Shown here piece by piece: positions 7,523 to 37,028 of a stretch of DNA of 40,248 nucleotides. Within the stretch, counting starts at the first letter, position 1. Each line of letters begins with the position of its first letter. A program made the translations under genes and the position numbers. The DNA is from a virus, in the IMG/VR virus record IMGVR_UViG_3300032291_001763, positions 1 through 40,248 of that record, one strand, 5' to 3'. A model generated the notes under the pieces. That model was not told the origin of the DNA, ran no database searches, and was given only the letters and a program-made list of their open reading frames with translations.

Positions 7523-7989
7523 TGCTTCTTTCAGAAATAATTAGTTTTATTAAAGAACAACAGGACTTGGAGCGTCAAAAATTCTCCGAGAACGACTTGC
7601 GTGGAAAGATGCTGAAAACTTTTCCTTGGGATGAAGAAGGTATGACGCAGTACATTGTTTGGGCTTTTTGTAGAGATTATCTTTTAATTGATTCAGACGA
7701 AAATGGTCTTACAGGCATAACGGTAGCATATGTACTTCCTTTTGGTGCTGGAAATGACATATCTTCTATACTTCCATATGAAACTGATGTCCCACGGGAA
7801 AAAGAACACCTAAAGGACATTACCATAATGGACACAATTTTTAAGACTAAAGCGGCTAGAAAAAACATAACACAAAAATTTATGAAAAGATTCCCTAATT
7901 GGAGAAACCAAAGAAAGTTTGGAAACAGAAAAGGACTCCCTGTTGTCCTTACTAACAAATACATAGAACTTGTTGGAGGACTTAACTAA
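7522..7989 (+). CDS. Hypothetical protein, possible fibre-associated or assembly protein
   Basis: This 155-residue mainly charged protein opens with a helix (LLSEIISFIKEQQDLERQKF) and ends with a basic region (KRFPNWRNQRKFGNRKG). Its DNA is strongly AT-rich compared with the operon, continuing the low-GC stretch of the fibre tip. The ATG shares one base with the fibre stop (TAATG). No family is recognised. Co-inheritance with the fibre tip suggests a dedicated chaperone or an accessory tail protein, but this is only inference. Confidence 0.75.
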   Translation: MLLSEIISFIKEQQDLERQKFSENDLRGKMLKTFPWDEEGMTQYIVWAFCRDYLLIDSDENGLTGITVAYVLPFGAGNDISSILPYETDVPREKEHLKDITIMDTIFKTKAARKNITQKFMKRFPNWRNQRKFGNRKGLPVVLTNKYIELVGGLN

Positions 7990-8936
7990 TGGATTCAATT
8001 AAATTTGCACAGTTCGGTGGGCGTTCTCCCGATTGCCAATGGGTTCAAGCCGCTATGATGGCGTATAGTGCCATCTCAGCAAACCAAGCAAAGAAGAAGG
8101 CTTCTGGTCTTCTTAATGCTCCTAACAATCGTTCTTATCTCGGTGAGATGCAATCTGCCCTTTCTGCACAGGAAGACATTCAGAATCAACTTATCGACTT
8201 AGAAGGTCAATATACGCCTAGGTATCAAGAATTACAAAAGGAAACACTCATGGGTCAGATGGGTACTCTCAATGACCTGTACCGCCAAGCGATTCCGCAG
8301 TCTATGGAACTTCAGAGCCAGTATGCTCAAGCACAGGCTCCTGTCTATGGTCAAGTAGGTCAAATGGCTTCTCAAGCCTACCAGCAGACCTTAGACCCCA
8401 CTACGCAGAAACTTGCCGCTCTCCAGCAACAGAGTGCGATGGAAGACCTTACCGCTGGTCGAAACCTCACCCCTCAACAGCAACAGTTAGCCCAGCAAAC
8501 GGCTAGACAGGCTATGGCGGCTAGAGGTCTTTCTGGCAATCAAGCGGTTGCCCAAGAGGTTCTGAATTCTTATCAGATGCAAGATGCCCGTGAAAACAGG
8601 GCAAGACAATATGCAAATACTGTTTATCAAGGCGGTCTGCAACATGCCCAGAACGCTATGAGTCTTTATGGTTCTCCCTTGCTTGCAAATATGAGCACAA
8701 TAAGCCCTTATGGTTTAATGACTCAATCACAGCAAATGCAACAAGGTCTTGGTGCTAAGATATTCAATCCAGAGTCTCAATACAACGCTGATATCTATGG
8801 TGCTAATCAAAGCAATACCGCACAATCTAGAATGGCTCTTGCAAACATTTACGCAGGACAAAGTGCTGGACAGATGGACATGATGGGTAAACTTGGTGCT
8901 GCCTACATGGGAAGCCAAGGCACAGGAGGCAACTAA
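7989..8936 (+). CDS. Gln/Ala-rich internal virion (ejection) protein
   Basis: This 315-residue protein is rich in Gln, Ala and Met. It starts with an amphipathic segment (VQAAMMAYSAISANQAKKKA), has a long coiled-coil-like middle (QNQLIDLEGQYTPRYQELQK) and Gln runs (NLTPQQQQLAQQTARQAM). This composition is typical of pilot or core proteins ejected with the DNA by short-tailed phages. It is the first of three consecutive large helical genes behind the fibre. A GGAGG sequence lies nine bases before its ATG, one of few in the window. Role assigned from composition and order, not a family match. Confidence 0.65.
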   Translation: MDSIKFAQFGGRSPDCQWVQAAMMAYSAISANQAKKKASGLLNAPNNRSYLGEMQSALSAQEDIQNQLIDLEGQYTPRYQELQKETLMGQMGTLNDLYRQAIPQSMELQSQYAQAQAPVYGQVGQMASQAYQQTLDPTTQKLAALQQQSAMEDLTAGRNLTPQQQQLAQQTARQAMAARGLSGNQAVAQEVLNSYQMQDARENRARQYANTVYQGGLQHAQNAMSLYGSPLLANMSTISPYGLMTQSQQMQQGLGAKIFNPESQYNADIYGANQSNTAQSRMALANIYAGQSAGQMDMMGKLGAAYMGSQGTGGN

Positions 8937-23455: not shown

Positions 23456-24238
23456 TTAGAACGGAACGTCGTCGCTGGTCTGGACAGGAGCCGCACAAGA
23501 ACTCAGTTTCTCGAACAGACGCTGGGCTTCTGCCTTGACCTTGAGGTCACGAGCGGACGGGTTCGGGTTATCACCGAACGGCTTAGGCGTCCAGCGTTTA
23601 GCGAAGTACGTCAGGTCGCCGAACTTGACTTCACGGTTAGGCTCGATGAGCGGAAGGCTGGATAGAGGCTTGCCCTTGTGGTCGCCGAACGGGACGAGGA
23701 CATCGCCAGCGGGTTCAGAAGACTTCTGGGTGAAGGCAGGAGCCGCAGACGGAGCAGAGGCAGGGGCAGACGGAGCGACGTAAGCCTTCTTAGCCGCAGG
23801 GGCCTTGGTGCGAATCTGTCGGTCGAGTTCAGCATCGTCATCGTCGGTGGCACAGCCTGCGATGGACGCCAGCGAGTAGCGACGGATGTAGGAATAAAGG
23901 ATTCCAGCCTGCTGTCCGCTGATGCCCTTCTCGGCAGGGATGTCAGCGTCGGACTTGATGTAACCGCCGTCCTTGTGGATGACGATAGTGGTGACGCCTA
24001 CGGTTCCTTCCGTGCCAGTAGGCATCTGGATGATGGCAAGGCCGTGCTTGGCGGCGATAGGCTTCAGGACTTCCAAGTGAGCCGAGAGGCTGGCGTACTT
24101 GGAGCCGTGAAACGGATTCACGGAGTCAGCATGGATGTCCTTGGTTTCAGCCACGAAGTTAATCAGGGCTTGGAACAGGGCTTGTTGGTTTTCTGCGGTG
24201 TTGGTGTGCATCTGGTTGAGATAGTCGAATACGCTCAT
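23456..24238 (-). CDS. ERF-family single-strand annealing recombinase
   Basis: This 260-residue protein has the ERF signature: NPFHGSKYASL (41-51), then AGILYSYIRRYSLASIAG (111-128) and an acidic CATDDDDAE. ERF proteins coat single-stranded DNA and pair complementary strands during phage recombination. A disordered Ala/Pro/Ser linker follows, then a small second region (VPFGDHKGKPLSSLP), and an acidic tip SDDVPF that mimics the SSB interaction tail. It should work with the RecE-like exonuclease at 26648-27466. It starts its own transcription unit: a promoter ends about seven bases before the ATG, suggesting a leaderless message. Confidence 0.9.
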   Translation of the reverse strand: MSVFDYLNQMHTNTAENQQALFQALINFVAETKDIHADSVNPFHGSKYASLSAHLEVLKPIAAKHGLAIIQMPTGTEGTVGVTTIVIHKDGGYIKSDADIPAEKGISGQQAGILYSYIRRYSLASIAGCATDDDDAELDRQIRTKAPAAKKAYVAPSAPASAPSAAPAFTQKSSEPAGDVLVPFGDHKGKPLSSLPLIEPNREVKFGDLTYFAKRWTPKPFGDNPNPSARDLKVKAEAQRLFEKLSSCAAPVQTSDDVPF

Positions 24239-24245
24239 GAGTAGT

Positions 24246-24273
24246 GTTATGTTGGTCTTTGTTTGTATGTCAA
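24246..24273 (-). promoter_or_regulatory. Sigma70-like promoter for the ERF operon
   Basis: On the minus strand TTGACA (24273-24268) is followed after 16 bases by CATAAC (24251-24246). The expected transcription start falls at or within a base or two of the ERF ATG at 24238. The -35 is a perfect consensus match and the -10 matches in four of six bases. The implied mRNA has almost no 5' leader. Confidence 0.6.
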
Positions 24274-24291
24274 GAGTTGATTGGATTATTT

Positions 24292-24468
24292 TTATTTATT
24301 TTCAGCGAGTCGCTTTTCGGTGTCGAGGACGTACAGCATGCCAAGACGGACGTATTGCGAGCGGGTCATGCCTGCCCTCTTGGCATACTTGGTGAGTTTG
24401 TCAAACAAAACTTTTTCCATTCTGCAAGTTAGCATGACTTCAGCATTGATTCTGTTGGTCTTTTTCAT
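24292..24468 (-). CDS. Ribbon-helix-helix type DNA-binding protein
   Basis: The start at 24468 overlaps the transglycosylase stop by ATGA, giving 58 residues. After a basic start (MKKTNRINAEVMLTCRMEKV) comes a helix pair typical of CopG/Arc-like repressors (KLTKYAKRAGMTRSQYVRLG). Such proteins dimerise and bind short palindromes. It sits just upstream of the ERF promoter, so it could regulate it. It is well supported as a coding gene by the overlap; family assignment is by pattern. Confidence 0.75.
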   Translation of the reverse strand: MKKTNRINAEVMLTCRMEKVLFDKLTKYAKRAGMTRSQYVRLGMLYVLDTEKRLAENK

Positions 24469-24941
24469 CGGGAGAGAATGTAGTTCGCACGAGCAAGGAT
24501 GCTTTTGCGTTTGTTGTCCAGCCAAAAAGATTGGTGGTCGAAGGCTTTGTTGTATGCACCTTGGAAGCCCATGTTGTACGCCATGTACAGGGAGATTGGA
24601 GTGACCTTGACCTTCATCCTATGCATCTGCTTCTCAAGGATTTCAAAATAAGCCTTGCAAGCAAGACGGCTTACCTGCGGGTCTTTGGCGAACTTCTTGT
24701 GGTTGTCAGCGAAGTCCAGCCATTCGTCACGGGAGATGCCATGATGAGCGGCGTACACACAAGCCTCACGCCAACTGGCTTCATGCATCTGCCAAGCCCC
24801 GATAGCCTTTCCTTTGTCGCCTACGGCTTCGTAGTTGAAGTTGGATTCAATGACCGCAACTTTGTCGATGAACTCTTCTGTGATGACAGACTTGGCCTCG
24901 ACGGAGGCACAGCCGAGAAGGAGTGCGAATAGTTTATTCAT
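24465..24941 (-). CDS. SLT-type lytic transglycosylase with lipobox
   Basis: This 158-residue protein has the soluble lytic transglycosylase fold signature: catalytic glutamate in VAVIESNFN (E32), GKAIGAWQMHEASW, and LYMAYNMGFQGAYNKA. It cleaves peptidoglycan and probably serves as the endolysin, since no other wall hydrolase is recognised. The N terminus MNKLFALLLGCASVEA looks like a short signal with a lipobox ending at Cys11, so it may be exported by the host and lipid-anchored rather than released through a holin. It lies in the leftward replication region, away from holin and spanin. Its leader reads acctaatcc before ATG. Confidence 0.85.
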   Translation of the reverse strand: MNKLFALLLGCASVEAKSVITEEFIDKVAVIESNFNYEAVGDKGKAIGAWQMHEASWREACVYAAHHGISRDEWLDFADNHKKFAKDPQVSRLACKAYFEILEKQMHRMKVKVTPISLYMAYNMGFQGAYNKAFDHQSFWLDNKRKSILARANYILSR

Positions 24942-24988
24942 GGATTAGGTTTTTTAGGAAACGTGTATCACAATACTGGATAAAGGAA

Positions 24989-25014
24989 GGGGACAGATTT
25001 TTTAGGTCTGCCCC
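24989..25014. other. Hairpin A with ATTTTTTAGG loop
   Basis: GGGG-A-CAGA (24989-24997) pairs with TCTG-CCCC (25007-25014), with the single A as a bulge, around the loop TTTTTTAGG. A second hairpin with different stem but a nearly identical loop lies at 30456-30479. The same 9-mer TTTTTTAGG recurs at 24949-24957 just upstream of the transglycosylase start. No trailing T-run on either strand makes it an obvious terminator. Confidence 0.5.
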
Positions 25015-25048
25015 CTTTGGGGCGTCCACCAACCAAGATGAACGTCGC

Positions 25049-25747
25049 TCAGTTTGCAGGTGAACTCTGGGAATCAACTCCGATTCCTACGCAAGTGTAA
25101 TAATCTTTTAGACGGCGGATAAGGGCAACGCCAGTTTCCTTGTCCCTGTTCTCGAAGCGTTCGACGAGCGACGAACCATTGAAGTTCGTGGTGATGACAG
25201 TAGGACGGCGAGCCGTGCTTCTTTCGTCGATGACGGCGAACAGGTCTGACGCCATGCGGGATGTCAAGCGTTCCTTTCCGAAGTCGTCAAAGGCCAAGAG
25301 TTTTGCATTGATGACAGACTCGATGACCTCGGCGTGTTCCTTGTCTTGGAAGCCTTTCTCAATCATGCCCTCGAACTTACGCATCGTGAGCACCATGAAC
25401 TTCATGTTCACGGACTTCTCGGTTTCCTTGACCCAAGCCCTGCGGACTACTTCCCAGAGTCCACGAGTCTTGCCTACGCCTGAGTTCCCGTGGAACAAGA
25501 GTCCTGATTTGTCGCCGCTTGGATTCCATTCCTCGACCTGTTGGCGAATCTTCGGGTGCAACAGCATGAGGTCTGTATCCCTGAAAATCTCTGGCATGGA
25601 CGGAGGATACACGCACGGGCCAAGACCCTCACGCTTCACACGCTCGGCGTCAAGATGCTCACGGCATTGCCACCAGCGTAGCAGGGTTCCGTCCTGCTTC
25701 TGGAACAAGGCTCCACGGCGTCCACAATGACAGGCGATGTCGCTCAT
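25049..25747 (-). CDS. DnaC/DnaI-like AAA+ helicase loader
   Basis: This 232-residue ATPase has Walker A GNSGVGKT (87-94), Walker B LLAFDDFGKE (150-159), and a sensor-like segment ending in ALIRRLKDYY. The family loads the replicative helicase on DNA at the origin. A short N-terminal Cys/His cluster (CHCGRR, then WWQCREH, residues 6-31) could bind zinc. There is no phage helicase nearby, so the target is probably the host helicase. It follows the initiator-like gene two positions upstream, forming a compact replication unit. The start overlaps the stop of the small upstream gene (ATGA). Confidence 0.85.
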   Translation of the reverse strand: MSDIACHCGRRGALFQKQDGTLLRWWQCREHLDAERVKREGLGPCVYPPSMPEIFRDTDLMLLHPKIRQQVEEWNPSGDKSGLLFHGNSGVGKTRGLWEVVRRAWVKETEKSVNMKFMVLTMRKFEGMIEKGFQDKEHAEVIESVINAKLLAFDDFGKERLTSRMASDLFAVIDERSTARRPTVITTNFNGSSLVERFENRDKETGVALIRRLKDYYTCVGIGVDSQSSPAN

Positions 25748-25908
25748 TCTACGGGCTCGGCATCAGGCACGATGGCCTTGCCAAGAATGATTTGTTCGTT
25801 CAGTTGTTCAATTTCAGAACGCAGTCTGTCGAACTCCTTGACAATCGTATCAGCCATTCCGTGCTGGACTAGCCAAGTGATATTCTTCTCGTTGATTTCT
25901 ATTCTCAT
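25744..25908 (-). CDS. Small coiled-coil protein, family member 3
   Basis: The start at 25908 is used because upstream ATGs run into the initiator gene. The 54-residue protein reads MRIEINEKNITWLVQHGMAD, then a heptad helix (VKEFDRLRSEIEQLNEQIIL) and the tail GKAIVPDAEPVE. The tail resembles NAIVLDAQPHE in the gene at 20986-21189. The leader ccgaaccaacc before ATG has no Shine-Dalgarno sequence. Between initiator and helicase loader it might bridge the two, but that is only a guess. Confidence 0.65.
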   Translation of the reverse strand: MRIEINEKNITWLVQHGMADTIVKEFDRLRSEIEQLNEQIILGKAIVPDAEPVE

Positions 25909-25919
25909 GGTTGGTTCGG

Positions 25920-26648
25920 TTAGAATGCGTCGTGGTCTTTTGCTGTCAAGGGCTTCTTGTGATACGCAGGCTGATTGTTCTGACGAGGAGCGAACAGACC
26001 CTGCCAGCCAGAACGGATGGACTGACTGATGCTTTCGATAGACCCTGCCTCTCCCCAGAGGACGAACTGTTTCCATTGGGCCTTGATGCTCTTGGGCTTC
26101 AAAGCCTTCTTCATTTCCTTTCGGTAGTCAATCCATTCAGCCCAAGACTTCTTGAACTCATCAGAACTGAAAGGCATAGGCCCAATCTCCTTGTCCTCCG
26201 CCCAAGGGATATCGTCTTCCGAAGAAGGGGTAGGGGTAGTTTTATCTTCTTTATTATCTTCTTTGTTATATGTATGCAATTCCTTGCATCCCCCCTGTGA
26301 AGTTCCTTTCATCCCCCCACGCACAGAATTGCACCCCTCGGAGCGAGTCACCTGTGTGTCCGCCAAGGCTTCTCGGACTGCCTGACGCTCGACTGTTCGG
26401 ATGACCCGATGACCGTCTGTCTCCTTGCGGGTGATAAGGCCAGCGTCTTCAAGGTCGCTCAGGATGTTCTGAATCTGACGCACAGTTAGGCCAAGGTGCT
26501 CGGATAGGTAAGCGTTGGATGCGAAGCACCCATCGGCGTTGTCAAGGCTCTCCAAGACGCCATAGACCACCTTGGCGATGAGGTTGATGTTCTTTGCTTG
26601 GAAGATGGCGGACGGAATCCAGACGCCCGTGAATTTAGGCTCTTGCAT
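25920..26648 (-). CDS. Winged-helix replication initiation protein (O/DnaD-like)
   Basis: The start at 26648 (MQEPKFTGVWIPSAIFQAKN) makes a TAATG overlap with the exonuclease stop. The 242-residue protein has an N-terminal winged helix: KVVYGVLESLDNADGCFASN, AYLSEHLGLTVRQIQNILSD, LEDAGLITRK. A Ser/Thr/Asp-rich linker follows and then a Trp-rich helical C-terminal region (SWAEWIDYRKEMKKALKPKS). Phage initiators of this type bind origin DNA and hand over to a DnaC-like loader, which is encoded two genes downstream. No iterons are obvious inside the gene. Confidence 0.7.
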   Translation of the reverse strand: MQEPKFTGVWIPSAIFQAKNINLIAKVVYGVLESLDNADGCFASNAYLSEHLGLTVRQIQNILSDLEDAGLITRKETDGHRVIRTVERQAVREALADTQVTRSEGCNSVRGGMKGTSQGGCKELHTYNKEDNKEDKTTPTPSSEDDIPWAEDKEIGPMPFSSDEFKKSWAEWIDYRKEMKKALKPKSIKAQWKQFVLWGEAGSIESISQSIRSGWQGLFAPRQNNQPAYHKKPLTAKDHDAF

Positions 26649-27466
26649 TAGATTTCGATTTCTTGCAGGTGAGACGGATAGCCGACCCAATCGCCGTCCT
26701 TCTGGCAAAGCAGGAAGTCGTTAATGGCTTGCTCCCAGAGGTCAACAGGACTCTTTACTCTGTATTTCATCAGGTTATGGATGTTAAATGTGTAGCAGGC
26801 TAGGCCGTGAGGAGCCTTGTCCTCGACAGGGATATACACAAACCTGTTCACAGTCAGGCCGTTCTGGATAGCCAGCCAAGTATAATGCACGGCTTGCACC
26901 CAGTACATTCTCTCCCTGACCATCTTGGAGAAAGCATACGGTGTTGCTGTCTGACACTTCTTGAAGTCCCAGATGGTTCCTGTTGCGGCGTCGTAGCCGT
27001 CGAGCATGCCTTTGAGTCGGACTTCACCCTCGTCGGTGACGGCGGTAGCGAACAAGCAGAGTTCTTTTTCCGTGGACTTCTTATAGAGTTCCGTGGCAAG
27101 ACCTCCGTTCGTAAGCACAGCCTCACGCATACCACGCAGACGCATCTCCTCCTCGGCGTCGATGACGATAAGCCCAGCGTTCTCAACCTCGAACTTGGCC
27201 TTGGCTTCCTTGTCTGCGGTTTTTCTGAGGTCGAACTTAGGCCCGACTACATAGCAAGGCTTCTCGTCCAGCATGAGCGAGTGAAAGCAAGTCCCGAAAA
27301 TCATGTCAGGCGTGGGCTTGAAAGGGTTCTCGGTGCTATGGATGTAGTGCTTCGGTGAGACGAAGAACTTGGAGAAAGCCGATTGGCTCAGCCCGAAAGC
27401 ACTTCGGTAATTACCGTCTTTTTCGCCCCGCAGGATAGCAGGGTCTTTTCCTTGGATGGTGAACAT
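26648..27466 (-). CDS. RecE-like PD-(D/E)XK exonuclease
   Basis: This 272-residue protein has the motif set of exonuclease VIII/DUF3799-type nucleases: GTCFHSLML (58-66), an acidic helix region with EKEL (133-136), MLDGYD (154-159) and TIWDFKK (164-170), whose D156 and D167-x-K169 make the catalytic PD-DxK. It degrades double-stranded DNA ends to leave single strands for the annealing protein. Its ERF partner is in the same leftward block but about 2.5 kb downstream and under another promoter. Its own promoter-like elements lie inside the end of the endonuclease VII gene. Confidence 0.85.
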   Translation of the reverse strand: MFTIQGKDPAILRGEKDGNYRSAFGLSQSAFSKFFVSPKHYIHSTENPFKPTPDMIFGTCFHSLMLDEKPCYVVGPKFDLRKTADKEAKAKFEVENAGLIVIDAEEEMRLRGMREAVLTNGGLATELYKKSTEKELCLFATAVTDEGEVRLKGMLDGYDAATGTIWDFKKCQTATPYAFSKMVRERMYWVQAVHYTWLAIQNGLTVNRFVYIPVEDKAPHGLACYTFNIHNLMKYRVKSPVDLWEQAINDFLLCQKDGDWVGYPSHLQEIEI

Positions 27467-27489
27467 ACAGTTGGGTTAGAAAACAAATG

Positions 27490-27516
27490 GTATTACAACA
27501 AAGGCAAAGAAGTCAA
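27490..27516 (-). promoter_or_regulatory. Possible promoter for the exonuclease-replication operon
   Basis: On the minus strand TTGACT (27516-27511) precedes TAATAC (27495-27490) with a 15-base spacer, and lies 24 bases upstream of the exonuclease ATG. The spacing is shorter than the usual 16-18, so this is a moderate candidate. Confidence 0.35.
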
Positions 27517-27893
27517 GCCTTGGCCTGCTTTTTCTTCAAGCGTCTTTCCTTGGCTTTCTTGTTCCTTCGGATACGTTTCTCGTCAGACGTCTTGTGCGTC
27601 GGATGGATTTCCGTCCGAGGGTGAGCGTCGAACGCATCCCAATACGCAAGCACACGAGCCACGAAACCATAACGGGTGCTCGTGCGTTTCGCTCGGTTCG
27701 CAAGGTTGTTAATCTTTCCCTCGATGCCGTTGCAGTTCCCGCACAGGACGCCTCGGATTAGGCCAGTCTTGTGGTCGTGGTCAAGACAAGCCTTCACGCT
27801 CGTGAGGTCTATGTTGCACAGCCAGCAAGTCCCGTTCTGGACTTTGGCGATTTCTGCACGGAGTTTAGGGATGTCTTTGGGCTTCAATCTCAT
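27513..27893 (-). CDS. Recombination endonuclease VII family protein
   Basis: This 126-residue protein has the His-Me nuclease core: C23-x2-C26 in CWLCNIDL, the catalytic LDHDHKTGLIRG (37-48) and C51-x2-C54 in CGNCNGIEGKI. Two CxxC pairs bind structural zinc. T4 gp49-type enzymes cut branched DNA such as Holliday junctions before packaging. The C-terminal third is a Lys/Arg-rich tail. It is somewhat shorter than T4 gp49, lacking a large dimer domain. It overlaps the membrane peptide gene upstream by four bases. Confidence 0.9.
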   Translation of the reverse strand: MRLKPKDIPKLRAEIAKVQNGTCWLCNIDLTSVKACLDHDHKTGLIRGVLCGNCNGIEGKINNLANRAKRTSTRYGFVARVLAYWDAFDAHPRTEIHPTHKTSDEKRIRRNKKAKERRLKKKQAKA

Positions 27894-28030
27894 AGGCGGA
27901 TGCGACGGCTTGCGTCTTGCTTGCGTTTAGCCGTGTCTCCCAGAGGAGTCAAGGCCAACAACCAGCAAATCAGCGTCAGCAGGAAGCATGCTGGGATAGC
28001 GACGAACATGAACATTAGGATATAGGCCAT
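27890..28030 (-). CDS. 46-residue membrane protein
   Basis: This short ORF reads MAYILMFMFVAIPACFLLTL followed by ICWLLALTPLGDTAKR and a basic tail. One long hydrophobic helix of about 27 residues is followed by a positive cytosolic tail. It overlaps endonuclease VII by ATGA. On its own strand TACAAT (28044-28039) stands eight bases before the ATG, suggesting a nearly leaderless transcript. Function unknown. Confidence 0.65.
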   Translation of the reverse strand: MAYILMFMFVAIPACFLLTLICWLLALTPLGDTAKRKQDASRRIRL

Positions 28031-28072
28031 ACAAGGATATTGTATCTTGGGGGTTATGTGGTGTAGTGAATT

Positions 28073-28534
28073 ATGGATTACGAGTCAAAGAAAGAGCGGA
28101 TTAACTCCAACCCCGCCAGCAATTGCACGGGTGCGAGTCTGCCCGACGAGACGAAGAAGAAGATTATGGAGATGACCTTGCAGGGTAAGTCCGTTGTGGA
28201 CATAAAGGAAGCCACAGGCGTGAGCAAGCCCACGATATACGCCCTGCAACGCAACGAAGGCGACAAGTTCGACCTCGGACAATGGAAGAAGACCACCACT
28301 TCCGTGATGTCTCAGATTGTAGCCCGTGGCTCCGAGAGGCTTCTGAGCGAGATTGATAACATCCCCGCAGGTCAGTTGCCTCTTACGATTGCAATCTTGA
28401 CGGACAAGATTATGGCTCTCCAAGACGCCCCTACCGTGGTCGTCGAACACAGATTGAAGGTCAGCCACGAGGACATCAATCAGATGATACGGGGCGACAG
28501 GGTGATAGACATCCCGCCGTCCGATGCCTCTTGA
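28073..28534 (+). CDS. Helix-turn-helix protein, possible small terminase or regulator
   Basis: This 153-residue protein has an N-terminal HTH (MTLQGKSVVDIKEATGVSKP, TIYALQ) and a helical C-terminal half (LPLTIAILTDKIMALQDAPT) followed by VVVEHRLKVSHEDINQMIRG. Small terminase subunits often pair such a HTH with a 'DKIaaLqG.PT..vEH' segment, so this is a candidate packaging-recognition protein, although it lies seven kilobases from the large subunit. A transcriptional regulator is the alternative. It is read opposite to its neighbours and shares a 42-base intergenic gap with the divergent membrane peptide gene. Confidence 0.75.
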   Translation: MDYESKKERINSNPASNCTGASLPDETKKKIMEMTLQGKSVVDIKEATGVSKPTIYALQRNEGDKFDLGQWKKTTTSVMSQIVARGSERLLSEIDNIPAGQLPLTIAILTDKIMALQDAPTVVVEHRLKVSHEDINQMIRGDRVIDIPPSDAS

Positions 28535-28555
28535 CATACCTGCGTCATACATAAT

Positions 28556-28831
28556 ATGACCCGTATGCTTCAATACAGGTTTAAGAACCTCAATATAAAG
28601 CACGACGGAATTGACCTGCTGGTTAATGGCGTGGGGCATTATGTGATAGAGGATTTCGAGGAGGACGGCAAGGAGGCGGCTTTCGAGTCCGCCGTGCTAT
28701 ACGACGCTCTCGGCAAGGAAGGCTACATCACCAGCAAGGAAGTATTGGGTCATATAGCGGATACCGCTGTCGCTTATCTGAACAACGACAGCCATCTTTG
28801 CAGGATGCTCGGGAATAAGTCCGTGGTTTAA
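28556..28831 (+). CDS. Hypothetical protein
   Basis: This 91-residue protein begins MTRMLQYRFKNLNIKHDGID and includes a charged helix (EDFEEDGKEAAFESAVLYDA). The preceding gene's stop codon lies within TTGACA (28531-28536), which is too close to the ATG for a normal promoter. Its end overlaps the convergent gene by four bases. No family is recognised. Confidence 0.7.
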   Translation: MTRMLQYRFKNLNIKHDGIDLLVNGVGHYVIEDFEEDGKEAAFESAVLYDALGKEGYITSKEVLGHIADTAVAYLNNDSHLCRMLGNKSVV

Positions 28832-29343
28832 GGCATGAAGTCGGGCGTGATTTTCTCACGCTCAACTACGTTTCCCATTTGGATTCGGAAGTGAACGGGT
28901 TCGAAGTTTCCGCACTCCTCGACGCAATACAGGTGGAATACAAGCGTCGGGAACATCTGCGAGAACTTGATGATAACAGGCATAGGAGGAGCCCAAGCGG
29001 TCTTGAACTTCCAGATTGCCACGGAAAATCCTGCGTCCTTTTGGATGCCTCCGAACTTCGTTTCCATAGCGTTCCACTTGGTTCCCCAGTTCTCAATGCA
29101 GAAGTCGTTAGCGTTGCAGAACCCGAACTTATCTTTCATCTGCTGTCTCTTACGGTTGCGTTCCTCGGCCTTGGCCTTGTCTCCGCCGTAGGTATGGAGT
29201 TCTTCTGATTTGAGTTCTTCTGGGCAACGAATCGCCTTATTGAAGTCGAACGGAAGTGACTTCGACTCAACCGCCGCAAGAAACACCGTGAGCATCCCGT
29301 CGTTTCCCTCGACGGCGAGGTCGTTATCTACATAATTAGGCAT
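28828..29343 (-). CDS. Api92/DUF1281-like protein
   Basis: The start at 29343 (MPNYVDNDLAVEGNDG) is chosen over an upstream frame ATG because the family begins MPNWxxN. The 171-residue protein has the family pattern: an opening beta strand, ESKSLPFDFNKAIRCPEEL, then FCIENWGTKWNAMETKF, whose NWGTKW is the hallmark, and a later FSQMFPTLVFHLYCVEECGN. The family has a ferredoxin-like fold and is found in phages and mobile elements; its function is unknown. It overlaps the next gene upstream by eight bases and the convergent gene by four. Confidence 0.75.
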   Translation of the reverse strand: MPNYVDNDLAVEGNDGMLTVFLAAVESKSLPFDFNKAIRCPEELKSEELHTYGGDKAKAEERNRKRQQMKDKFGFCNANDFCIENWGTKWNAMETKFGGIQKDAGFSVAIWKFKTAWAPPMPVIIKFSQMFPTLVFHLYCVEECGNFEPVHFRIQMGNVVEREKITPDFMP

Positions 29344-29803
29344 AGTATTTGTCCTGTTGGTGATTAAGTTCAAGTATCCCGAGGTTAGAGATAACCGCAA
29401 GGTCAATGTCAGTCGGGCCTTGGAAAACATTCAAGGCATTGAGTTCTTCGTTCTCCCACTTCCAGCGGGCGACATCGAAAGCATTGTAATGTTTCTTCCC
29501 CTTGATGCCGACCCAAGCATAACGGACTGTCCCCGTCAAAAGCATCACGTTGCTTCCGTATTGGATAGGGTAGTCGATTAGGTAGTTCTTCAACTCTTGC
29601 TCCTTGCTCGCCGTGGACACTCCGAGGAGTTCATCGGAGCAGTCAAGGCAGATAGAAGCAAGGCGGGACAGCACGAGGCACTTGAACGCCTTGGCCTCCT
29701 CATCATCGGGCGAATGAAACGCAAGCGAGGCAATCACCTTGTCGGCCTCCTTAAAGGCGTTGAGGGCTATATGGGCGGCGTTTTGTTTGTCTTGTGAGTT
29801 CAT
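29336..29803 (-). CDS. Hypothetical protein
   Basis: This 155-residue protein begins with a helical segment (NAAHIALNAFKEADKVIASL) and a Cys-containing stretch (VLSRLASICLDCSDELLGVS), followed by a beta-like centre (NVMLLTGTVRYAWVGIKGKK). The leader ctaatcct before ATG lacks GGAGG. It lies between the Api92-like and ArdA-like genes in an accessory cluster. No family is recognised. Confidence 0.7.
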   Translation of the reverse strand: MNSQDKQNAAHIALNAFKEADKVIASLAFHSPDDEEAKAFKCLVLSRLASICLDCSDELLGVSTASKEQELKNYLIDYPIQYGSNVMLLTGTVRYAWVGIKGKKHYNAFDVARWKWENEELNALNVFQGPTDIDLAVISNLGILELNHQQDKYYA

Positions 29804-29807
29804 AGGA

Positions 29808-30140
29808 TTAGATGCTTCGGAAGAAGTATTCGCCCGATTGCCAGAAATCCCCGCCGAGGATTAGGTCACGCCCATAAGCGTCGTAATCGAAATACGGACG
29901 CAGGTTCTCGGGCATTTCGTCAAGCGTTCCGAGGTCGTCGCAAATGTATTCAGCGAGGTCTGCGGCGTTGCGGAATTCACCCGCAAAGGCATCCTTGCAC
30001 TCTTCCCAATTCTCTTCCGTAGGTTCTTCGAGGTGGAAGTTTTCAATCCAGCAAGCGAAGATTGCTTCGCAGTTCGGAAAGCCGTCGGGGTTCGCTTCAA
30101 AAAAACGGACGGAGAGGGCTTGGGCTTTTTCGTAGGTCAT
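29808..30140 (-). CDS. Minimal ArdA-like antirestriction protein
   Basis: This 110-residue acidic protein resembles ArdA in its C-terminal half: FAGEFRNAADLAEYICDDL (52-70), LRPYFDYDAYGRDLILGGDF (80-99) and an ending GEYFFRSI. ArdA proteins mimic B-form DNA with surface Asp/Glu and block Type I restriction enzymes. Canonical ArdA is about 165 residues in three domains; this one is shorter and could represent a reduced form. Very acidic composition agrees. It stands in a cluster of small accessory genes with other probable host-interaction functions. Confidence 0.75.
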   Translation of the reverse strand: MTYEKAQALSVRFFEANPDGFPNCEAIFACWIENFHLEEPTEENWEECKDAFAGEFRNAADLAEYICDDLGTLDEMPENLRPYFDYDAYGRDLILGGDFWQSGEYFFRSI

Positions 30141-30158
30141 AGGATTATGGGTTAAAGA

Positions 30159-30377
30159 TTAGACACAGTTTCCGTTTTCGTCGATTTCAAACGCCTCGGT
30201 ATCGCCGTTGGAGTTGCAAAGGGCTTCGTCCACGAGTTCCGTAAAACGCTTGTGGCCTTTTTCATTGTCTCCGACATAATCGGAATACTTCTGACGGGCT
30301 TCCGAGCCAGACTTTGCGTCCACTTCATAGCAGACACAGATGGTTTCGATTACACGATATTTTTTTAGTTTGCTCAT
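30159..30377 (-). CDS. Small hypothetical protein
   Basis: This 72-residue protein starts MSKLKKYRVIETICVCYEVD and continues AKSGSEARQKYSDYVG, a pattern resembling small DpnD/PcfM-type domains ('y.V.et....y.VeA.s..eA'). It is acidic at the C terminus. Its leader caacccaacca before ATG lacks a ribosome site. It is the first gene of the accessory leftward unit. Function unknown. Confidence 0.65.
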   Translation of the reverse strand: MSKLKKYRVIETICVCYEVDAKSGSEARQKYSDYVGDNEKGHKRFTELVDEALCNSNGDTEAFEIDENGNCV

Positions 30378-30455
30378 TGGTTGGGTTGGTTGTTATTATG
30401 TAATACAGATAAAAGAGAATGTAAATAAGGAAGTGAAAGTTTTTCGGCTGTCGGC

Positions 30456-30479
30456 GGGGGTGATTTTTAGGCCACCCCC
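30456..30479. other. Hairpin B with ATTTTTAGGC loop
   Basis: GGGGGTG (30456-30462) pairs perfectly with CACCCCC (30473-30479) around ATTTTTAGGC. The loop matches that of the hairpin at 24989-25014 although the stems differ, hinting at conserved structure. Both lie upstream of leftward genes. The rest of 30378-30658 holds another short hairpin, CCCC-ttgc-GGGG at 30517-30528, and no convincing gene. Confidence 0.5.
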
Positions 30480-30658
30480 ACCTTAATAAGCCGTGTTGCA
30501 TTTGTTGGTTGGTTAGCCCCTTGCGGGGAAGTTATTAGGGAACCCTTTTGCCTATGAACACAATGAATGACAGCGGGGTTTTACAGACTTCCCAATCAAA
30601 CCTAATCGCAAGGTGGTTGTTTAAGCGGGCTGTTCTACCGCCCTTGCAAAGTTATCCC

Positions 30659-30682
30659 AATAAAGGGGAGGTTGCCCTCCCC
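30659..30682 (-). terminator. Intrinsic terminator after the 77-residue leftward gene
   Basis: On the minus strand a perfect seven-pair stem, GGGGAGG with CCTCCCC around a four-base loop (30665-30682), is followed by TTTATT (30664-30659). It begins six bases after the stop codon of the gene at 30688-30921. Confidence 0.65.
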
Positions 30683-30687
30683 TGCGA

Positions 30688-30921
30688 TTAAGCCTTATAA
30701 GAACCGAGGAACTCGAACCAATAACGGGAACGGCCCACGGCAAACCAAAAGCCGCAAGAAGCGGTTTTGTCTTTCCCCGTGTTTCCGTAGCGTTTTAGTT
30801 CGCCTTCCTCATTCACAATCAAATCCCCACAGGCAGGGTCTGACAAAACGACTTTCGCCGTCTCTTTAAGTCCGCTTGGGTATTCAATCGTAATTTCCTT
30901 ACTTGGGTTTAGGTGTCGCAT
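30688..30921 (-). CDS. Small beta-rich hypothetical protein
   Basis: The start at 30921 (MRHLNPSKEITIEYPSGLKE) is preferred to an upstream ATG at 31053 because the extended part is Gln/Gly-rich noncoding-like sequence. The 77-residue protein has beta strands (TAKVVLSDPACGDLIVNEEG) and ends CGFWFAVGRSRYWFEFLGSY-KA. It has its own intrinsic terminator just downstream, which supports transcription. No family is recognised. Confidence 0.6.
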   Translation of the reverse strand: MRHLNPSKEITIEYPSGLKETAKVVLSDPACGDLIVNEEGELKRYGNTGKDKTASCGFWFAVGRSRYWFEFLGSYKA

Positions 30922-31449
30922 TGGGATGAGAAAGAGCGGGTGTCGGGTTGAGGGTTGCCCCTGCCTAACATCTATTAAGTTATACCTCCCTTGACCTTGT
31001 GCAACCTCTTTTTCAAGCCCCTTGTATCCATTAGACGGACTAACAGGTTGCATAAGGTTTGCTTATCAAAGCCCGTAGAGGGGTGCTTCTTTTGGCCTAT
31101 GCAAGACCCTTGACCCTATACTGAAAACGCCTCTGAGGGCATTTGTGCAAGGGTTTTTAAAGCGTTCTGTATCAATGACTTACGGGATGAGTCTGTAACT
31201 TTTTACACGGCATAGAATTATTCTAAGTCAATGCCAATCTCACAAGGGATTTGGGTATTAGAAATGCTAATGAACCCACGCTTGAAATCTAATGACAGTT
31301 TCAAGGGCCTTGGCACGCTACCTGCACAGGTGGCTACATAAGGAAAACTTATGAGGCCATTAGGACTGATAATAGGTCAAAGGGTCTTGAAATAGGCGTT
31401 GACCTAACCCAATGGGTGCTTTCAATGGGTCTTGCATTAAGCATCCTAT
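30922..31449. other. Divergent control region without a convincing gene
   Basis: This stretch separates leftward and rightward gene sets. It holds a TATACT -10-like element at 31117-31122, a perfect 6+1+6 palindrome TAGAATTATTCTA at 31213-31225 that could be an operator, two copies of CAATGGGT 13 bases apart (31410-31417, 31423-31430), and a promoter-like pair at 31399-31426. The composition is rich in short CCCT/AAGG words. No long ORF with good start context was found. Confidence 0.5.
31399..31426 (+). promoter_or_regulatory. Possible rightward early promoter
   Basis: TTGACC (31399-31404) and TTCAAT (31421-31426) are separated by 16 bases, 23 bases upstream of the first rightward small gene. 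Two direct repeats CAATGGGT flank or overlap the -10, a position where a regulator would block or aid polymerase. Confidence 0.4.
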
Positions 31450-31731
31450 ATGAACAACCCCCGCCTCACGCCCGTTCGGGCTATCAAAGTTAAATACATC
31501 CCGCCCACTAACCACAAGGGAGGCCGACACAAGGCCGAACTCCTCGGGACGCATTTGACCCTAACCCTCCCTTATGATTACGCAACCAATGACGGCGGGA
31601 AGCATAAGACCGCCCTTGCCCTTCTCTATAAGGCAAAGCAAACCGACAACCTCCAACACTTCGGGCAAAGCGAACTTTCGGAAACTTTCGCCTTGAACAA
31701 TGACGAAACCGTTTTCACGCTTTCCCTCTAA
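31450..31731 (+). CDS. Small hypothetical protein (rightward accessory gene 1)
   Basis: This 93-residue protein begins MNNPRLTPVRAIKVKYIPPT and continues NHKGGRHKAELLGTHLTLTL then YDYATNDGGKHKTALALLYK. The N-terminal part is basic and beta-like; it resembles short phage proteins with an 'iKV.Y.ppTn.rGsR.ka' pattern of unknown role. It is first in a set of five rightward small genes with the recurrent atcct leader before ATG. Function unknown. Confidence 0.7.
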   Translation: MNNPRLTPVRAIKVKYIPPTNHKGGRHKAELLGTHLTLTLPYDYATNDGGKHKTALALLYKAKQTDNLQHFGQSELSETFALNNDETVFTLSL

Positions 31732-31735
31732 TCCT

Positions 31736-31819
31736 ATGCGAACCCTAAAAGACCTTCTAACCGCCCTTGCCATTGTCGCCTTGCTTTGGCTGTACGCCGT
31801 TGCCTTTCTGTCTCTATAA
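31736..31819 (+). CDS. 27-residue single-span membrane peptide
   Basis: The ORF reads MRTLKDLLTALAIVALLWLY followed by AVAFLSL. A positive N terminus precedes a single transmembrane helix that fills the rest. It begins four bases after the previous stop, with the leader taatcct before ATG that recurs in this cluster. Its stop codon lies within the AT-rich element shared with 32228-32242. Very short, so support comes from start context and position. Confidence 0.5.
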   Translation: MRTLKDLLTALAIVALLWLYAVAFLSL

Positions 31820-31828
31820 TTATATAAT
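31800..31828 (+). promoter_or_regulatory. Promoter predicted to give a leaderless mRNA
   Basis: TTGCCT (31800-31805), a 17-base spacer, and a perfect TATAAT (31823-31828) are followed by six bases and then the ATG at 31835. Transcription would begin essentially at the start codon. The -10 lies within tataattatataata (31815-31829), repeated exactly at 32228-32242. Confidence 0.55.
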
Positions 31829-31834
31829 AATCCT

Positions 31835-31993
31835 ATGACCCAAACCGCAAACCTGTTCCTTATGGAGTTCCAAGCCCTTTGTGGTCAATGGGGCGTTTCC
31901 CCCGCTGTCGCCCTTGAAGATAAGGCCGTAAGAGACGCAATCAAAGCAAGAGACTTGGACGCCTTGAATGAAGCACTTTCTAATGTCTTCTAA
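31835..31993 (+). CDS. Small hypothetical protein (rightward accessory gene 3)
   Basis: This 52-residue protein reads MTQTANLFLMEFQALCGQWG, VSPAVALEDKAVRDAIKARD, then LDALNEALSNVF. It is mostly helical and acidic at the end. A consensus-like promoter sits so close upstream that the message should be leaderless. No family is recognised. Confidence 0.6.
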   Translation: MTQTANLFLMEFQALCGQWGVSPAVALEDKAVRDAIKARDLDALNEALSNVF

Positions 31994-32002
31994 TATAAAC
32001 CT

Positions 32003-32233
32003 ATGAACCGCAAGACCCTCCCCGCCTCCCTTGGTGTCTTTCTCGCCTTGAACAAGCGAACGGATGCCCCTGCTTTCTCCGCTCAATACTGGCATGCCCA
32101 CACCCTGCTAATGAATGAAGTAAACCGACTAAATGCTCTACTTGTAAAATACAAGGTTGCCACAAAACCCTTGGACTTCTCTGAGGCAATCCGCTACGCT
32201 GTCCAGCAAGTAAGGGTTTGTCATTCTGTATAA
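32003..32233 (+). CDS. Small hypothetical protein (rightward accessory gene 4)
   Basis: This 76-residue helical protein begins MNRKTLPASLGVFLALNKRT and includes YWHAHTLLMNEVNRLNALLV. TAATAT (31991-31996) lies six bases before the ATG, again fitting leaderless initiation, though its -35 is weak. Its stop overlaps the second copy of the AT-rich element. No family is recognised. Confidence 0.65.
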   Translation: MNRKTLPASLGVFLALNKRTDAPAFSAQYWHAHTLLMNEVNRLNALLVKYKVATKPLDFSEAIRYAVQQVRVCHSV

Positions 32234-32242
32234 TTATATAAT
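32228..32242 (+). repeat. Repeated AT-rich promoter-like element
   Basis: The 15-base word tataattatataata occurs here and at 31815-31829, each time covering the stop codon of a small gene. It contains TATAAT cores. Just downstream lies an inverted repeat CTAATA-cccct-TATTAG (32256-32272) that could be an operator; related ctaatacccc words occur near 32277 and 33196. Confidence 0.5.
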
Positions 32243-32358
32243 ACAAAACCCCTTAACTAATACCCCTTATTAGCCCGCCTAATACCCCTCACCCGTCCTT
32301 AACTTAGTCTTGTGCTTCCGTTCCAAGGGCCTTTAATCACCTACGCACAACACATCCT

Positions 32359-32610
32359 ATGAATAACGAAAACCAACCCTCACCCGCAAAAATAGAATTC
32401 TACGGTTACGCTCTTCCCTCGGGCTATACCTTGAACGAAGCCCAAGCCCTCTCGCTTGAACGGGTGGCAAAACGATGGGAGGTTAGCCCGTTTGCCCTTT
32501 TAGACGGGGCAAGCCAAGGTTTTGGGAACCCTGAAACGGCGGAACTCCTAATCAATCCCAAGGGTCAAATTTGGCTTGGAATTGAGAGAGACGGGTATTG
32601 CCACTCCTGA
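32359..32610 (+). CDS. Small hypothetical protein (rightward accessory gene 5)
   Basis: This 83-residue protein starts MNNENQPSPAKIEFYGYALP and has ALSLERVAKRWEVSPFALLD and AELLINPKGQIWLGIERDGY. The leader acacatcct before ATG is like that of its neighbours. It is the last protein of the rightward accessory set and is followed by a strong terminator. No family is recognised. Confidence 0.7.
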   Translation: MNNENQPSPAKIEFYGYALPSGYTLNEAQALSLERVAKRWEVSPFALLDGASQGFGNPETAELLINPKGQIWLGIERDGYCHS

Positions 32611-32639
32611 GCAAACAAAACGCCCCACAAGCCAAGCCC

Positions 32640-32662
32640 GCCCCCTCAATGGGGGCTTTTTT
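32640..32662 (+). terminator. Intrinsic terminator ending the rightward accessory operon
   Basis: GCCCCC (32640-32645) and GGGGGC (32651-32656) form a six-pair stem around TCAAT, followed immediately by TTTTTT (32657-32662). This lies 30 bases after the preceding stop and is the clearest terminator in the window. Confidence 0.9.
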
Positions 32663-32699
32663 GTGCCTGCCTCTTTTGGCCTTTGCTCCTTTCTGGCGC

Positions 32700-32960
32700 A
32701 AGGGTCTTGGTTTATTATAAAATAATATTATTATAAAACTAAGGGATTATTATAGTATTATACAATGGTCTTGTATGGGATTTATGGTTACAAGGGATTG
32801 TGTATTGATGGATTGAATACAAGGGATTGTGTATTGAATTAGTCCCTACATACAGACTTTACTTTATAATAACATTAGTAACCAACCTATGATTACATTA
32901 TATTATTATACAACCGCCTGCCTTGGTATTCTATTATAATATTATAGACTGACCTGCCTG
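32700..32960. other. AT-rich repeat region, candidate replication origin
   Basis: A noncoding tract of about 250 bases is strongly AT-rich and repetitive: TTATTATA occurs at 32712, 32728 and 32747, with further tattattata and attataatattata words near 32905-32945. It also contains a 20-base direct repeat (32789-32808 and 32818-32837). AT-rich, repeat-bearing DNA between two transcription units could serve as an unwinding element. No homology to a known origin is recognised. Confidence 0.4.
32789..32837. repeat. Pair of 20-base direct repeats
   Basis: tacaagggattgtgtattga occurs at 32789-32808 and again at 32818-32837, separated by nine bases (29-base period). They sit within the AT-rich noncoding region and could be binding sites for the phage initiator. 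Confidence 0.8.
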
Positions 32961-33244: not shown

Positions 33245-33269
33245 CCCCCAATTCTGGGGGATTATTATT
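33245..33269 (+). terminator. Terminator-like hairpin
   Basis: CCCCCA (33245-33250) and TGGGGG (33255-33260) make a six-pair stem with a four-base loop, followed by ATTATTATT instead of an unbroken T-run. It could terminate transcription from upstream or mark the boundary of a following RNA. Confidence 0.45.
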
Positions 33270-33905: not shown

Positions 33906-33916
33906 GACCTTTTTTC

Positions 33917-35235: not shown

Positions 35236-36843
35236 ATGTCTTTCTCGCCCACACCTCACCCCGTGCTTCTTACGCCGTCTCAGGACGACATAAGGACGCT
35301 GGTTGACAAGTACGGCGAACAGAAGACGGCCGAGATTCTTACTCTCAGGGAAGACAAGATTCTTGCCGAGAAGTTAGACCCGTATCGTCATGGCTTTGAC
35401 CTAGGGCATTGGAAGGAAGCGGACGAACTCCTGAAGTCCAAGCAAGAGATACTTATCCTTGGTGGCAACAGAGCCTCGAAAACAGAGTGGGCGGCGAAGC
35501 GGGTAGTCCAGACCCTGATTAACCTGAAGGACGCAAGAGTATGGTGTCTGCATACTACGAACCAGTCAAGCGTCCAGATGCAACAAAGCGTGGTGTACAA
35601 GTATCTTCCGTCGGAGTTCAAGGAACTCAAGAAGAACCGAATCCAGAACGTGCAGTACACCCAGAAGAACGGATTCTCTGACAACACGTTCATCCTGCCG
35701 AACAAGTCGCAGTGCTTCTTCATGAACTACGCCCAGAAGCGTGACGTCATCGAAGGCGGCGAAGTTGACCTCATCTGGTGCGACGAACTCGTGCCGCTGG
35801 ATTGGGTCGAGACGCTCAGGTATCGTATCGTCACCCGTGGCGGCAAACTCATCGTGACGTTCACGCCTGTCACTGGATACAGTCCTGTCGTCAAAGAGTA
35901 CGTCAGCGGTTGCAAGTTCATCGAGACTCGGCCTGCGGAGTTGCTCTCGGAGCACGTTAACGTCCAAGGCGTTCCTCGTGGTCATATGCCGTTCAAGGCT
36001 GACTGCATGAACAAGAATTCCTCTGTGATGTGGTTTCACTCGCAGTTGAACCCGTACTCCTCTTGGGATAAGATGACCAAGACCCTTCAGGGTAAGAAAC
36101 CTTATGAAATCAAAATCAGAGCGTACGGCTGGGCCGATAACGTCGCTGGCAACCAATTCCCTAGGTTCAACCCAGACGTCAACGTCGTCAAGCCAGAAAA
36201 CGTCCCCGCTGAAGGTACTAACTACATGGTCGTTGACCCTGCTGGCTCTCGTAACTGGTTCATGCTTTGGGCTAGAGTTAGTCCTAATGGGGATATATAC
36301 GTTTATCGTGAATGGCCTGACGAATCTGAGGGCGAGTGGGCTGTTCCTTCTTCAGAGCCTGACGGCAAGATGGGGACTGCTCAACGAAACGGGGCTGGGC
36401 GTTCTCTTGCTGAGTATAAATCGCTCATTCTAGACCTTGAGGACGCAGAGGAAATATCCGAGCGGTACATCGACCCTCGTGCTGGCGGAACCAAGGCTGT
36501 CACGGATGACGGCGGCCAGACGCTGATAGACATGCTCGATGACGGAGAGCAACAGATGCACTTCACCCCAGCGGCAGGCATCAGGATTGAACAGGGCGTC
36601 GCCATGATTAACGACGGCTTTGCTTACGACTATAATCAGGAACTCAGCCCGCTGAACAAGCCTAAGTTGTACATCAGCGAGGCATGCGTGAACCTGATTT
36701 ACTGTGTCAAGGAGTGGACTGGACAGGACGGAGACAAGGGTGCGACCAAAGACCCTATCGACTGCCTGCGATACCTTATGGTCATGAATCCAGAGTTCAC
36801 GGATAACGACACGATGAAAGGATACGGAGGAGGCTCTTACTGA
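35236..36843 (+). CDS. terL: Terminase large subunit
   Basis: This 535-residue DNA-packaging motor has the ATPase Walker A-like ILGGNRASKTEW (75-85) and Walker B LIWCDEL (180-186), a motif near TFTPVTGYSP, and an RNase-H-like nuclease half with VVDPAGSRNWF, IDPRAGGTKAVTDDGG and C-terminal DPIDCLRYL. The Walker A has Ser where Gly is usual (A-S-K-T). The length is typical. It docks on the portal and translocates DNA into proheads. Its stop overlaps the next small gene (TGATG). Confidence 0.95.
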   Translation: MSFSPTPHPVLLTPSQDDIRTLVDKYGEQKTAEILTLREDKILAEKLDPYRHGFDLGHWKEADELLKSKQEILILGGNRASKTEWAAKRVVQTLINLKDARVWCLHTTNQSSVQMQQSVVYKYLPSEFKELKKNRIQNVQYTQKNGFSDNTFILPNKSQCFFMNYAQKRDVIEGGEVDLIWCDELVPLDWVETLRYRIVTRGGKLIVTFTPVTGYSPVVKEYVSGCKFIETRPAELLSEHVNVQGVPRGHMPFKADCMNKNSSVMWFHSQLNPYSSWDKMTKTLQGKKPYEIKIRAYGWADNVAGNQFPRFNPDVNVVKPENVPAEGTNYMVVDPAGSRNWFMLWARVSPNGDIYVYREWPDESEGEWAVPSSEPDGKMGTAQRNGAGRSLAEYKSLILDLEDAEEISERYIDPRAGGTKAVTDDGGQTLIDMLDDGEQQMHFTPAAGIRIEQGVAMINDGFAYDYNQELSPLNKPKLYISEACVNLIYCVKEWTGQDGDKGATKDPIDCLRYLMVMNPEFTDNDTMKGYGGGSY

Positions 36844-37028
36844 TGCAAGCGTACTATCCGATGATTCTTACCAGAACCAAGGCGATGCTTTTCGCAGGAA
36901 TAAGCAGGCACGTTCTGGAAACCTTAGCCAAAGAAGGCAAGGTCAGATATTTTACCACAAGCGGAGGCCACAGACGCTTCGTTCGTGCAGATTTGAACAG
37001 ATACTTAAATGAAAAACTACAAAAATAA
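36843..37028 (+). CDS. MerR/excisionase-type HTH protein
   Basis: This 61-residue protein reads LTRTKAMLFAGISRHVLETL then AKEGKVRYFTTSGGHRRFVR and ADLNRYL. The 'tSGGHRRF' wing is characteristic of MerR-superfamily DNA binders and excisionase-like proteins. It overlaps the portal start by 20 bases and the terminase stop by one base. A GGAGGAGG stretch lies 10 bases upstream. A DNA-binding gene between terminase and portal is unusual; it might recognise packaging DNA or regulate late genes. Confidence 0.8.
   Translation: MQAYYPMILTRTKAMLFAGISRHVLETLAKEGKVRYFTTSGGHRRFVRADLNRYLNEKLQK

What the first reader, a model, noticed from the sequence alone, without database searches (positions are those of the whole stretch)
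23456..32610. Predicted leaderless messages and scarce Shine-Dalgarno sites
Seen: TATAAT ends six bases before ATG at 31835; TAATAT six bases before 32003; CATAAC seven bases before 24238; TACAAT eight bases before 28030. Many other starts after gaps have aatcct, aacct or accaacca before ATG and no GGAGG. Exceptions with GGAGG: 7989, 8941, 36843, 39189. Inferred: transcription at these genes begins at the start codon and translation uses leaderless or non-SD initiation.
Basis: partly seen in the sequence, partly recalled or inferred. Interest (0 to 1): 0.65.

Follow-up and report, generated by a model that had tools for sequence, protein, structure and literature searches.

The report
Leaderless early genes in Verrucomicrobiota-like phages
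This uncultured phage and its relatives appear to start several messages exactly at the protein's start codon and largely do without the usual ribosome-binding signal, as some bacteria of the phylum they probably infect (Verrucomicrobiota) also seem to do.

Summary
The quoted strings are all present, and Shine-Dalgarno (SD) sites are scarce. Taken singly, the four -10-like strings prove little: promoter-like sites in 19-35 kb are no commoner than in shuffles. TAATAT before 32003 contains the upstream gene's stop codon. The strings before 31835 and 28030 are absent from close orthologs. Only 24238 (TTGACA-16-CATAAC-7-ATG) belongs to a conserved pattern. A better test supports the general idea. 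In the window plus 15 related phages, the -35 word TTGAC piles up at -41..-33 from ATG (37 sites, 3.5 expected), mode -36: where a -35 box lies if transcription starts at the A of ATG. A -10-like signal follows at the canonical spacing. Two genomes of the order carrying related phage genes (Opitutae MAG G018, and G038) show the same peak and SD scarcity; an SD-using Verrucomicrobiota genome and E. coli do not. SD enrichment is confined to overlapping genes, which explains the GGAGG exceptions. The window has an overlooked case at 28565. 'aatcct' is a start-proximal motif, not a promoter. Published Akkermansia TSS mapping (10% leaderless) gives phylum-level precedent. No RNA data exist for these phages; the window's own host is unproven.

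The parts
24268..24273 (-). -35 box TTGACA at -35 from ATG 24238 (Erf gene 23456-24238)
   Evidence: sequence; TTGAC at -35..-37 before orthologs in six phages counting the window
24246..24251 (-). -10-like CATAAC, 16 nt after the -35 box, 7 nt before ATG 24238
28531..28536 (+). -35 box TTGACA at -34 from ATG 28565; shares CTCTTGACATAC with the 24238 promoter
   Evidence: TTGAC about 34-40 nt before the equivalent Met in listed orthologs (counted by hand)
28552..28557 (+). -10-like TAATAT, 15 nt after the -35 box, 7 nt before ATG 28565
28565..28831 (+). gene with predicted leaderless start at 28565; the longest ORF (from 28556) begins inside the -10
   Evidence: most orthologs align from residue 4 of the long form
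31800..31828 (+). TTGCCT-17-TATAAT promoter-like site ending 6 nt before ATG 31835; weak support
   Evidence: 10 of 12 consensus matches; not conserved in orthologs; TATAATTATATAATA repeated at 32229
31991..31996 (+). TAATAT before 32003: TAA is the stop codon of gene 31835-31993; not a convincing promoter
28039..28044 (-). TACAAT before the 46-aa ORF 27890-28030; not conserved
29801..29809 (-). AATCCTATG start context, 4 nt behind the upstream stop; other copies 30138-30146(-), 31730-31738(+), 31829-31837(+)
   Evidence: 4 found, 0.21 expected
7970..7991 (+). SD GGAGG before 7989, an overlapping (-1) gene junction
36820..36845 (+). SD GGAGG before 36843, an overlapping (-1) gene junction; the same type at 39189, and at 8941 (gap 4)

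Best explanation
The phage follows the translation-initiation habit of an SD-scarce Verrucomicrobiota host. A subset of operon-heading genes, mostly early or DNA-metabolism genes (24238 Erf and 28565 in the window; exonuclease, transglycosylase and a gene upstream of the terminase in relatives), are read from sigma70-type promoters. Their -35 box TTGAC lies about 36 nt, and their -10 about 7-14 nt, before the start codon, so transcription starts at or within a few nt of the A of ATG. The leaderless or nearly leaderless mRNA is then presumably bound directly by initiator-tRNA-loaded ribosomes. Other genes use G-poor, A-rich, SD-free leaders, often with TCCT or TCTA next to the ATG. SD motifs are enriched only at overlapping genes, where ribosomes reinitiate. 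Shown here: the sequence statistics, the conservation and the match to host-lineage genomes. Inferred: the transcription start, the ribosome mechanism and the identity of the window's own host.
For: TTGAC at -41..-33: 37 sites against 3.5 expected in the window plus 15 relatives (p 4e-25), mode -36, none at -33..-31; reverse word GTCAA flat. The start model used only -25..-1, so it could not create the peak. 10 protein families lie in the peak. A -10-like hexamer at spacer 16: z 4.5 in phages, 2.9 in G018, 4.5 in G038. G018: 15 against 2.0; G038: 25 against 4.4; SD-using G254: 0 against 1.6; E. coli: 3 against 0.9. SD 4-mers at starts with gaps over 30 nt: 9% in phages, G018 and G038; 71% G254, 57% E. 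coli, 73% lambda. Of 77 leaderless-like starts 76 are ATG and 3 carry an SD 4-mer. Related phage genes in Verrucomicrobiota genomes. Published: Akkermansia 10% leaderless TSS against 0.4% in E. coli (PMC4782308); SD-scarce Verrucomicrobia with intact CCUCC (PMC10783764).
Against: No mapped 5' ends. TATAAT or TANNNT shows no sharp peak in the phages, and many individual -10 boxes are poor, especially where GTAATAC follows TTGAC directly. A second group of 11 families has TTGAC at -56..-49, compatible with 15-20 nt leaders or wrong starts. Several window orthologs of peak genes (24941, 27466, 34351) lack a clear TTGAC. Phage orthologs are not independent. The host is inferred from distant relatives.
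Confidence: 0.74

Rival explanations
1. The genes have short but real leaders (about 5-20 nt), G-poor and unstructured, read by SD-independent 30S initiation (S1 or A-rich context, as in Bacteroidota). True leaderless starts are rare.
For: Strong G depletion and A enrichment upstream of starts; shoulder of TTGAC at -53..-42 in G018 and G038 and at -56..-49 in phages.
Against: The mode at -36 and the cliff at -33 place the expected TSS on the ATG rather than 10-20 nt upstream.
Confidence: 0.2
2. TTGAC near -36 is an operator or other DNA element with fixed spacing to the gene, not a -35 box; the real promoters lie further upstream.
For: Operator-like GTAATAC sits beside TTGAC in many cases; some -10 boxes are poor.
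Against: The same peak appears at unrelated chromosomal genes of G018 and G038, and -10 scores rise exactly at spacers 16-18.
Confidence: 0.06
3. The aatcct motif pairs with the host 16S rRNA, for instance with GGAU just before the anti-SD, and acts as an alternative SD.
For: AATCCTATG is enriched, and ATCC is complementary to the GGAU that precedes CACCUCC in ordinary bacterial 16S tails (general knowledge).
Against: Only 4 nt match, and it abuts the start codon. The commonest words at -4 are mixed (TCTA, TCCT, TAAT, ACCA), and the host-lineage genomes prefer CC at -2,-1 instead. The host 16S could not be read.
Confidence: 0.05

Closest known systems
Leaderless ('TA-led') genes of bacteria (Zheng et al. 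2011, PMC3160421; Actinobacteria, Deinococcus-Thermus)
   Same: Promoter directly abuts the start codon, SD absent, operon-heading genes
   Different: There the signal is a TANNNT -10 near -12. Here it is mainly the -35 word TTGAC at -36, with a weaker -10. Verrucomicrobia does not occur in that paper's text.
Akkermansia muciniphila leaderless transcripts (Cappable-seq, PMC4782308)
   Same: Same phylum as the probable hosts; 10% of mapped TSS lie at gene starts
   Different: Experimental and cellular, a gut organism; here a prediction in phages and in Opitutae-type genomes
[quoted passage not shown]
   Same: SD at no more than background before non-overlapping genes
   Different: The 16S tail could not be tested here; SD enrichment remains at overlapping genes
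Phage C75C1 (OQ984151)
   Same: Terminase 33% and capsid 32% identity; similar gene order, with Erf, exonuclease and endonuclease VII on the opposite strand
   Different: Host not recorded; its overlapping genes show more SD (50% of 8) and there is no TTGAC peak, from only 10 usable starts

Membership tests
leaderless genes (bacterial, sigma70 type) | -35 and -10 boxes placed so that the TSS falls on or next to the start codon | tested here: met
   TTGAC peak at -36 and -10 signal at spacer 16 family-wide; in the window met for 24238 and 28565, partly for 31835, not for 32003 or 28030
leaderless genes (bacterial, sigma70 type) | no SD before the start | tested here: met
   2 of 37 phage leaderless-like starts have an SD 4-mer
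leaderless genes (bacterial, sigma70 type) | AUG start codon | tested here: met
   37 of 37 in phages, 39 of 40 in G018 and G038
leaderless genes (bacterial, sigma70 type) | mapped 5' end at the start codon | not testable with these tools
   no RNA data
leaderless genes (bacterial, sigma70 type) | TANNNT peak near -12 (Zheng definition) | tested here: inconclusive
   no sharp TATAAT or TANNNT peak, but -10 score raised at spacer 16 behind TTGAC
SD-scarce initiation with intact anti-SD | SD not above background | tested here: met
   6-9% against shuffled 5-10% and coding about 20% for non-overlapping starts
SD-scarce initiation with intact anti-SD | CCUCC in the 16S tail of the host | not testable with these tools
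   16S tails absent from held genomes
phages of Verrucomicrobiota | relative integrated in, or matched to, a Verrucomicrobiota genome | tested here: met
   34% identical terminase in a 400 kb Opitutae contig with SU10-type capsid gene, recombinase-like gene (DUF6538) and tRNA-Met; 50% in a Pedosphaera MAG contig; weaker homologs bring the phylum total to 19 of 388 genomes. Not shown for the window itself.

The most novel reading that the evidence does not exclude
In a lineage of Opitutae-type Verrucomicrobiota and in their phages, leaderless initiation is the default for operon-heading genes and SD is kept only for coupled genes. The phages additionally set a palindromic operator (GTAATAC) inside these leaderless promoters, so one regulator may control many leaderless early mRNAs.
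Probability: 0.35. Interest if true: 0.6.

Novelty: new member of a known kind. Interest (0 to 1): 0.47.

Why it matters
Phages of uncultured Verrucomicrobiota are little studied. The result gives a sequence signature (TTGAC about 36 nt before ATG) that predicts gene starts, transcription starts and a shared initiation style in phage and host, and could help assign hosts. It also shows that SD-based start prediction will misplace starts here, as at 28556 versus 28565.

Tried and rejected
TATAAT or TANNNT peak near -12, as in Deinococcus or Actinobacteria: no clear peak in the phages. Two-box promoter count over the region: not above shuffles. Reading aatcct as part of a promoter: rejected because it recurs 4 nt behind stop codons and stays in an ortholog without TATAAT. 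TAATAT at 32003 and TACAAT at 28030 as promoters: rejected. Megablast of the window's 20-40 kb against known phages: none. Rfam: only tRNAs. 16S tail of host genomes: not present in the held data. Library searches for a paper on leaderless phages of Verrucomicrobia or on Phage C75C1: none relevant.

Full report
What the window is. The 40,248-base window is a whole IMG/VR record of an uncultured tailed phage. It carries a major head protein gene (466-1500, phrog_1328), a terminase (35236-36843), a 2313-aa protein, a leftward block with Erf, exonuclease VIII-like, replication-initiation and helicase-loader genes, and six tRNAs. IMG/VR holds more than 400 terminase relatives and more than 540 capsid relatives. 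The closest named phage is C75C1 at 33% terminase identity, host not recorded.

Host. A scan of about 85,000 genomes found only two terminase relatives, both Verrucomicrobiota. One lies in a 400 kb contig of an Opitutae MAG (G018), beside a recombinase-like gene (DUF6538), an SU10-type capsid gene and a tRNA-Met, so it looks like a provirus. The other is a 13.5 kb contig of a Pedosphaera MAG. Among 388 Verrucomicrobiota genomes 19 hold a homolog, most of them weaker, including G038 of the same order as G018. This makes a Verrucomicrobiota host likely for the family. It is not shown for the window itself.

All are present. Their value differs. 24238: TTGACA-16-CATAAC-7-ATG, with TTGAC at -35..-37 before orthologs in six phages counting the window. 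31835: TTGCCT-17-TATAAT-6-ATG, but orthologs of 88% and 79% identity have only ctaatcc(t/a)-ATG, and the AT-rich element recurs at 32229 behind gene 32003. 32003: the TAA of TAATAT is the previous gene's stop, and no proper -35 exists. 28030: a 46-aa ORF whose two orthologs lack TACAAT. As a class, promoter-like sites in the region are not above chance.

SD usage. I took the window and 15 related phage records and called genes and starts with my own script (generic version). Non-overlapping starts carry SD 4-mers at 6-9%, equal to shuffled upstreams and below coding background (20-22%). Overlapping starts are enriched over shuffles (26%; strong SD 12.8% against 5-7% in coding controls). At starts with gaps over 30 nt the same script gives 71% in an SD-using Verrucomicrobiota genome (G254) and 57% in E. 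coli and 73% in lambda, but 9% in G018 and G038. In G038 overlapping genes keep SD (43%).

Leaderless signature. If transcription starts at the A of ATG, a -35 box must begin near -36. TTGAC does so. Upstream of 261 starts with gaps over 30 nt, 37 TTGAC words begin at -41..-33 against 3.5 expected (p 4e-25); the mode is -36 and none lie at -33..-31. The reverse word shows nothing. The start model used only -25..-1, so it could not have created this peak. Collapsed to protein families, 10 families lie in the peak against about 2-3 per bin, and 11 at -56..-49, where some starts may be wrong or leaders short. A -10-like hexamer follows at spacer 16 (z 4.5). G018 (15 against 2.0, p 3e-9; -10 z 2.9 at spacer 16) and G038 (25 against 4.4, p 1e-11; z 4.5, 3.1 and 3.6 at spacers 16-18) repeat it in their own genes, with a shoulder of short leaders at -53..-42. 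G254 (0 against 1.6) and E. coli (3 against 0.9) do not. Nearly all leaderless-like starts are ATG (76 of 77), and 3 of 77 carry an SD 4-mer. Most orthologs align from that second Met, and TTGAC lies about 34-40 nt before the equivalent position in the orthologs I counted (distances counted by hand).

Other starts. Most remaining genes have G-poor, A-rich upstreams, often with TCTA or TCCT next to ATG. AATCCTATG occurs four times in the window (0.21 expected), two of them directly after a TAA stop (29803 and 31736). This is a feature of non-SD initiation, not a promoter.

Known context. Akkermansia muciniphila has 10% leaderless TSS against 0.4% in E. coli (PMC4782308). Akkermansia and the Verrucomicrobia bacterium IMCC26134 are SD-scarce with an intact CCUCC (PMC10783764). 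Zheng et al. define leaderless genes by a TA signal near -12, and Verrucomicrobia does not occur in their text (PMC3160421). The present case is thus a new member of a known kind. Within the library searched I found no earlier report of it in this phage family or through its -35 box.

Limits. No RNA data. The host of the window itself is inferred. The 16S tails are not in the held genomes. Start calls are computational, and phage orthologs are not independent samples.

Noticed in passing
window 27490(-), 24965(-), 30400; many intergenic regions of the related phages: Seven-base near-palindrome GTAATAC/GTATTAC/GTGATAC; GTAATAC occurs 25 times against 1.2 expected in upstream regions of 12 genomes, often 2-5 nt behind TTGAC or at about -20. 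It looks like an operator for a phage regulator set inside the promoters.
   Followed up: partly
upstream of orthologs of window 34351-34752 (e.g. L020, L026, L042): Inverted repeat TCGAC-N5-GTCG between TTGAC and the ATG, conserved among relatives: a second operator-like element.
   Followed up: no
window 31815-32946: AT-rich palindromic element TATAATTATATAATA: six copies with up to 2 mismatches in this stretch and one at 5443, against 0.02 expected for the window. Role unknown; possibly replication-related or a mobile promoter.
   Followed up: no
window 33250-33916: Stretch with no long ORF in front of the tRNA cluster and no Rfam match; function unexplained.
   Followed up: no
G018 contigs (L193-L212, L308-L317): C at -1 in about 80% and at -2 in about 60% of starts of this Opitutae MAG, a strong start-proximal signature of its own.
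   Followed up: no
window 28556 versus 28565: The longest ORF starts at 28556, but orthologs and promoter geometry favour ATG 28565.
   Followed up: yes
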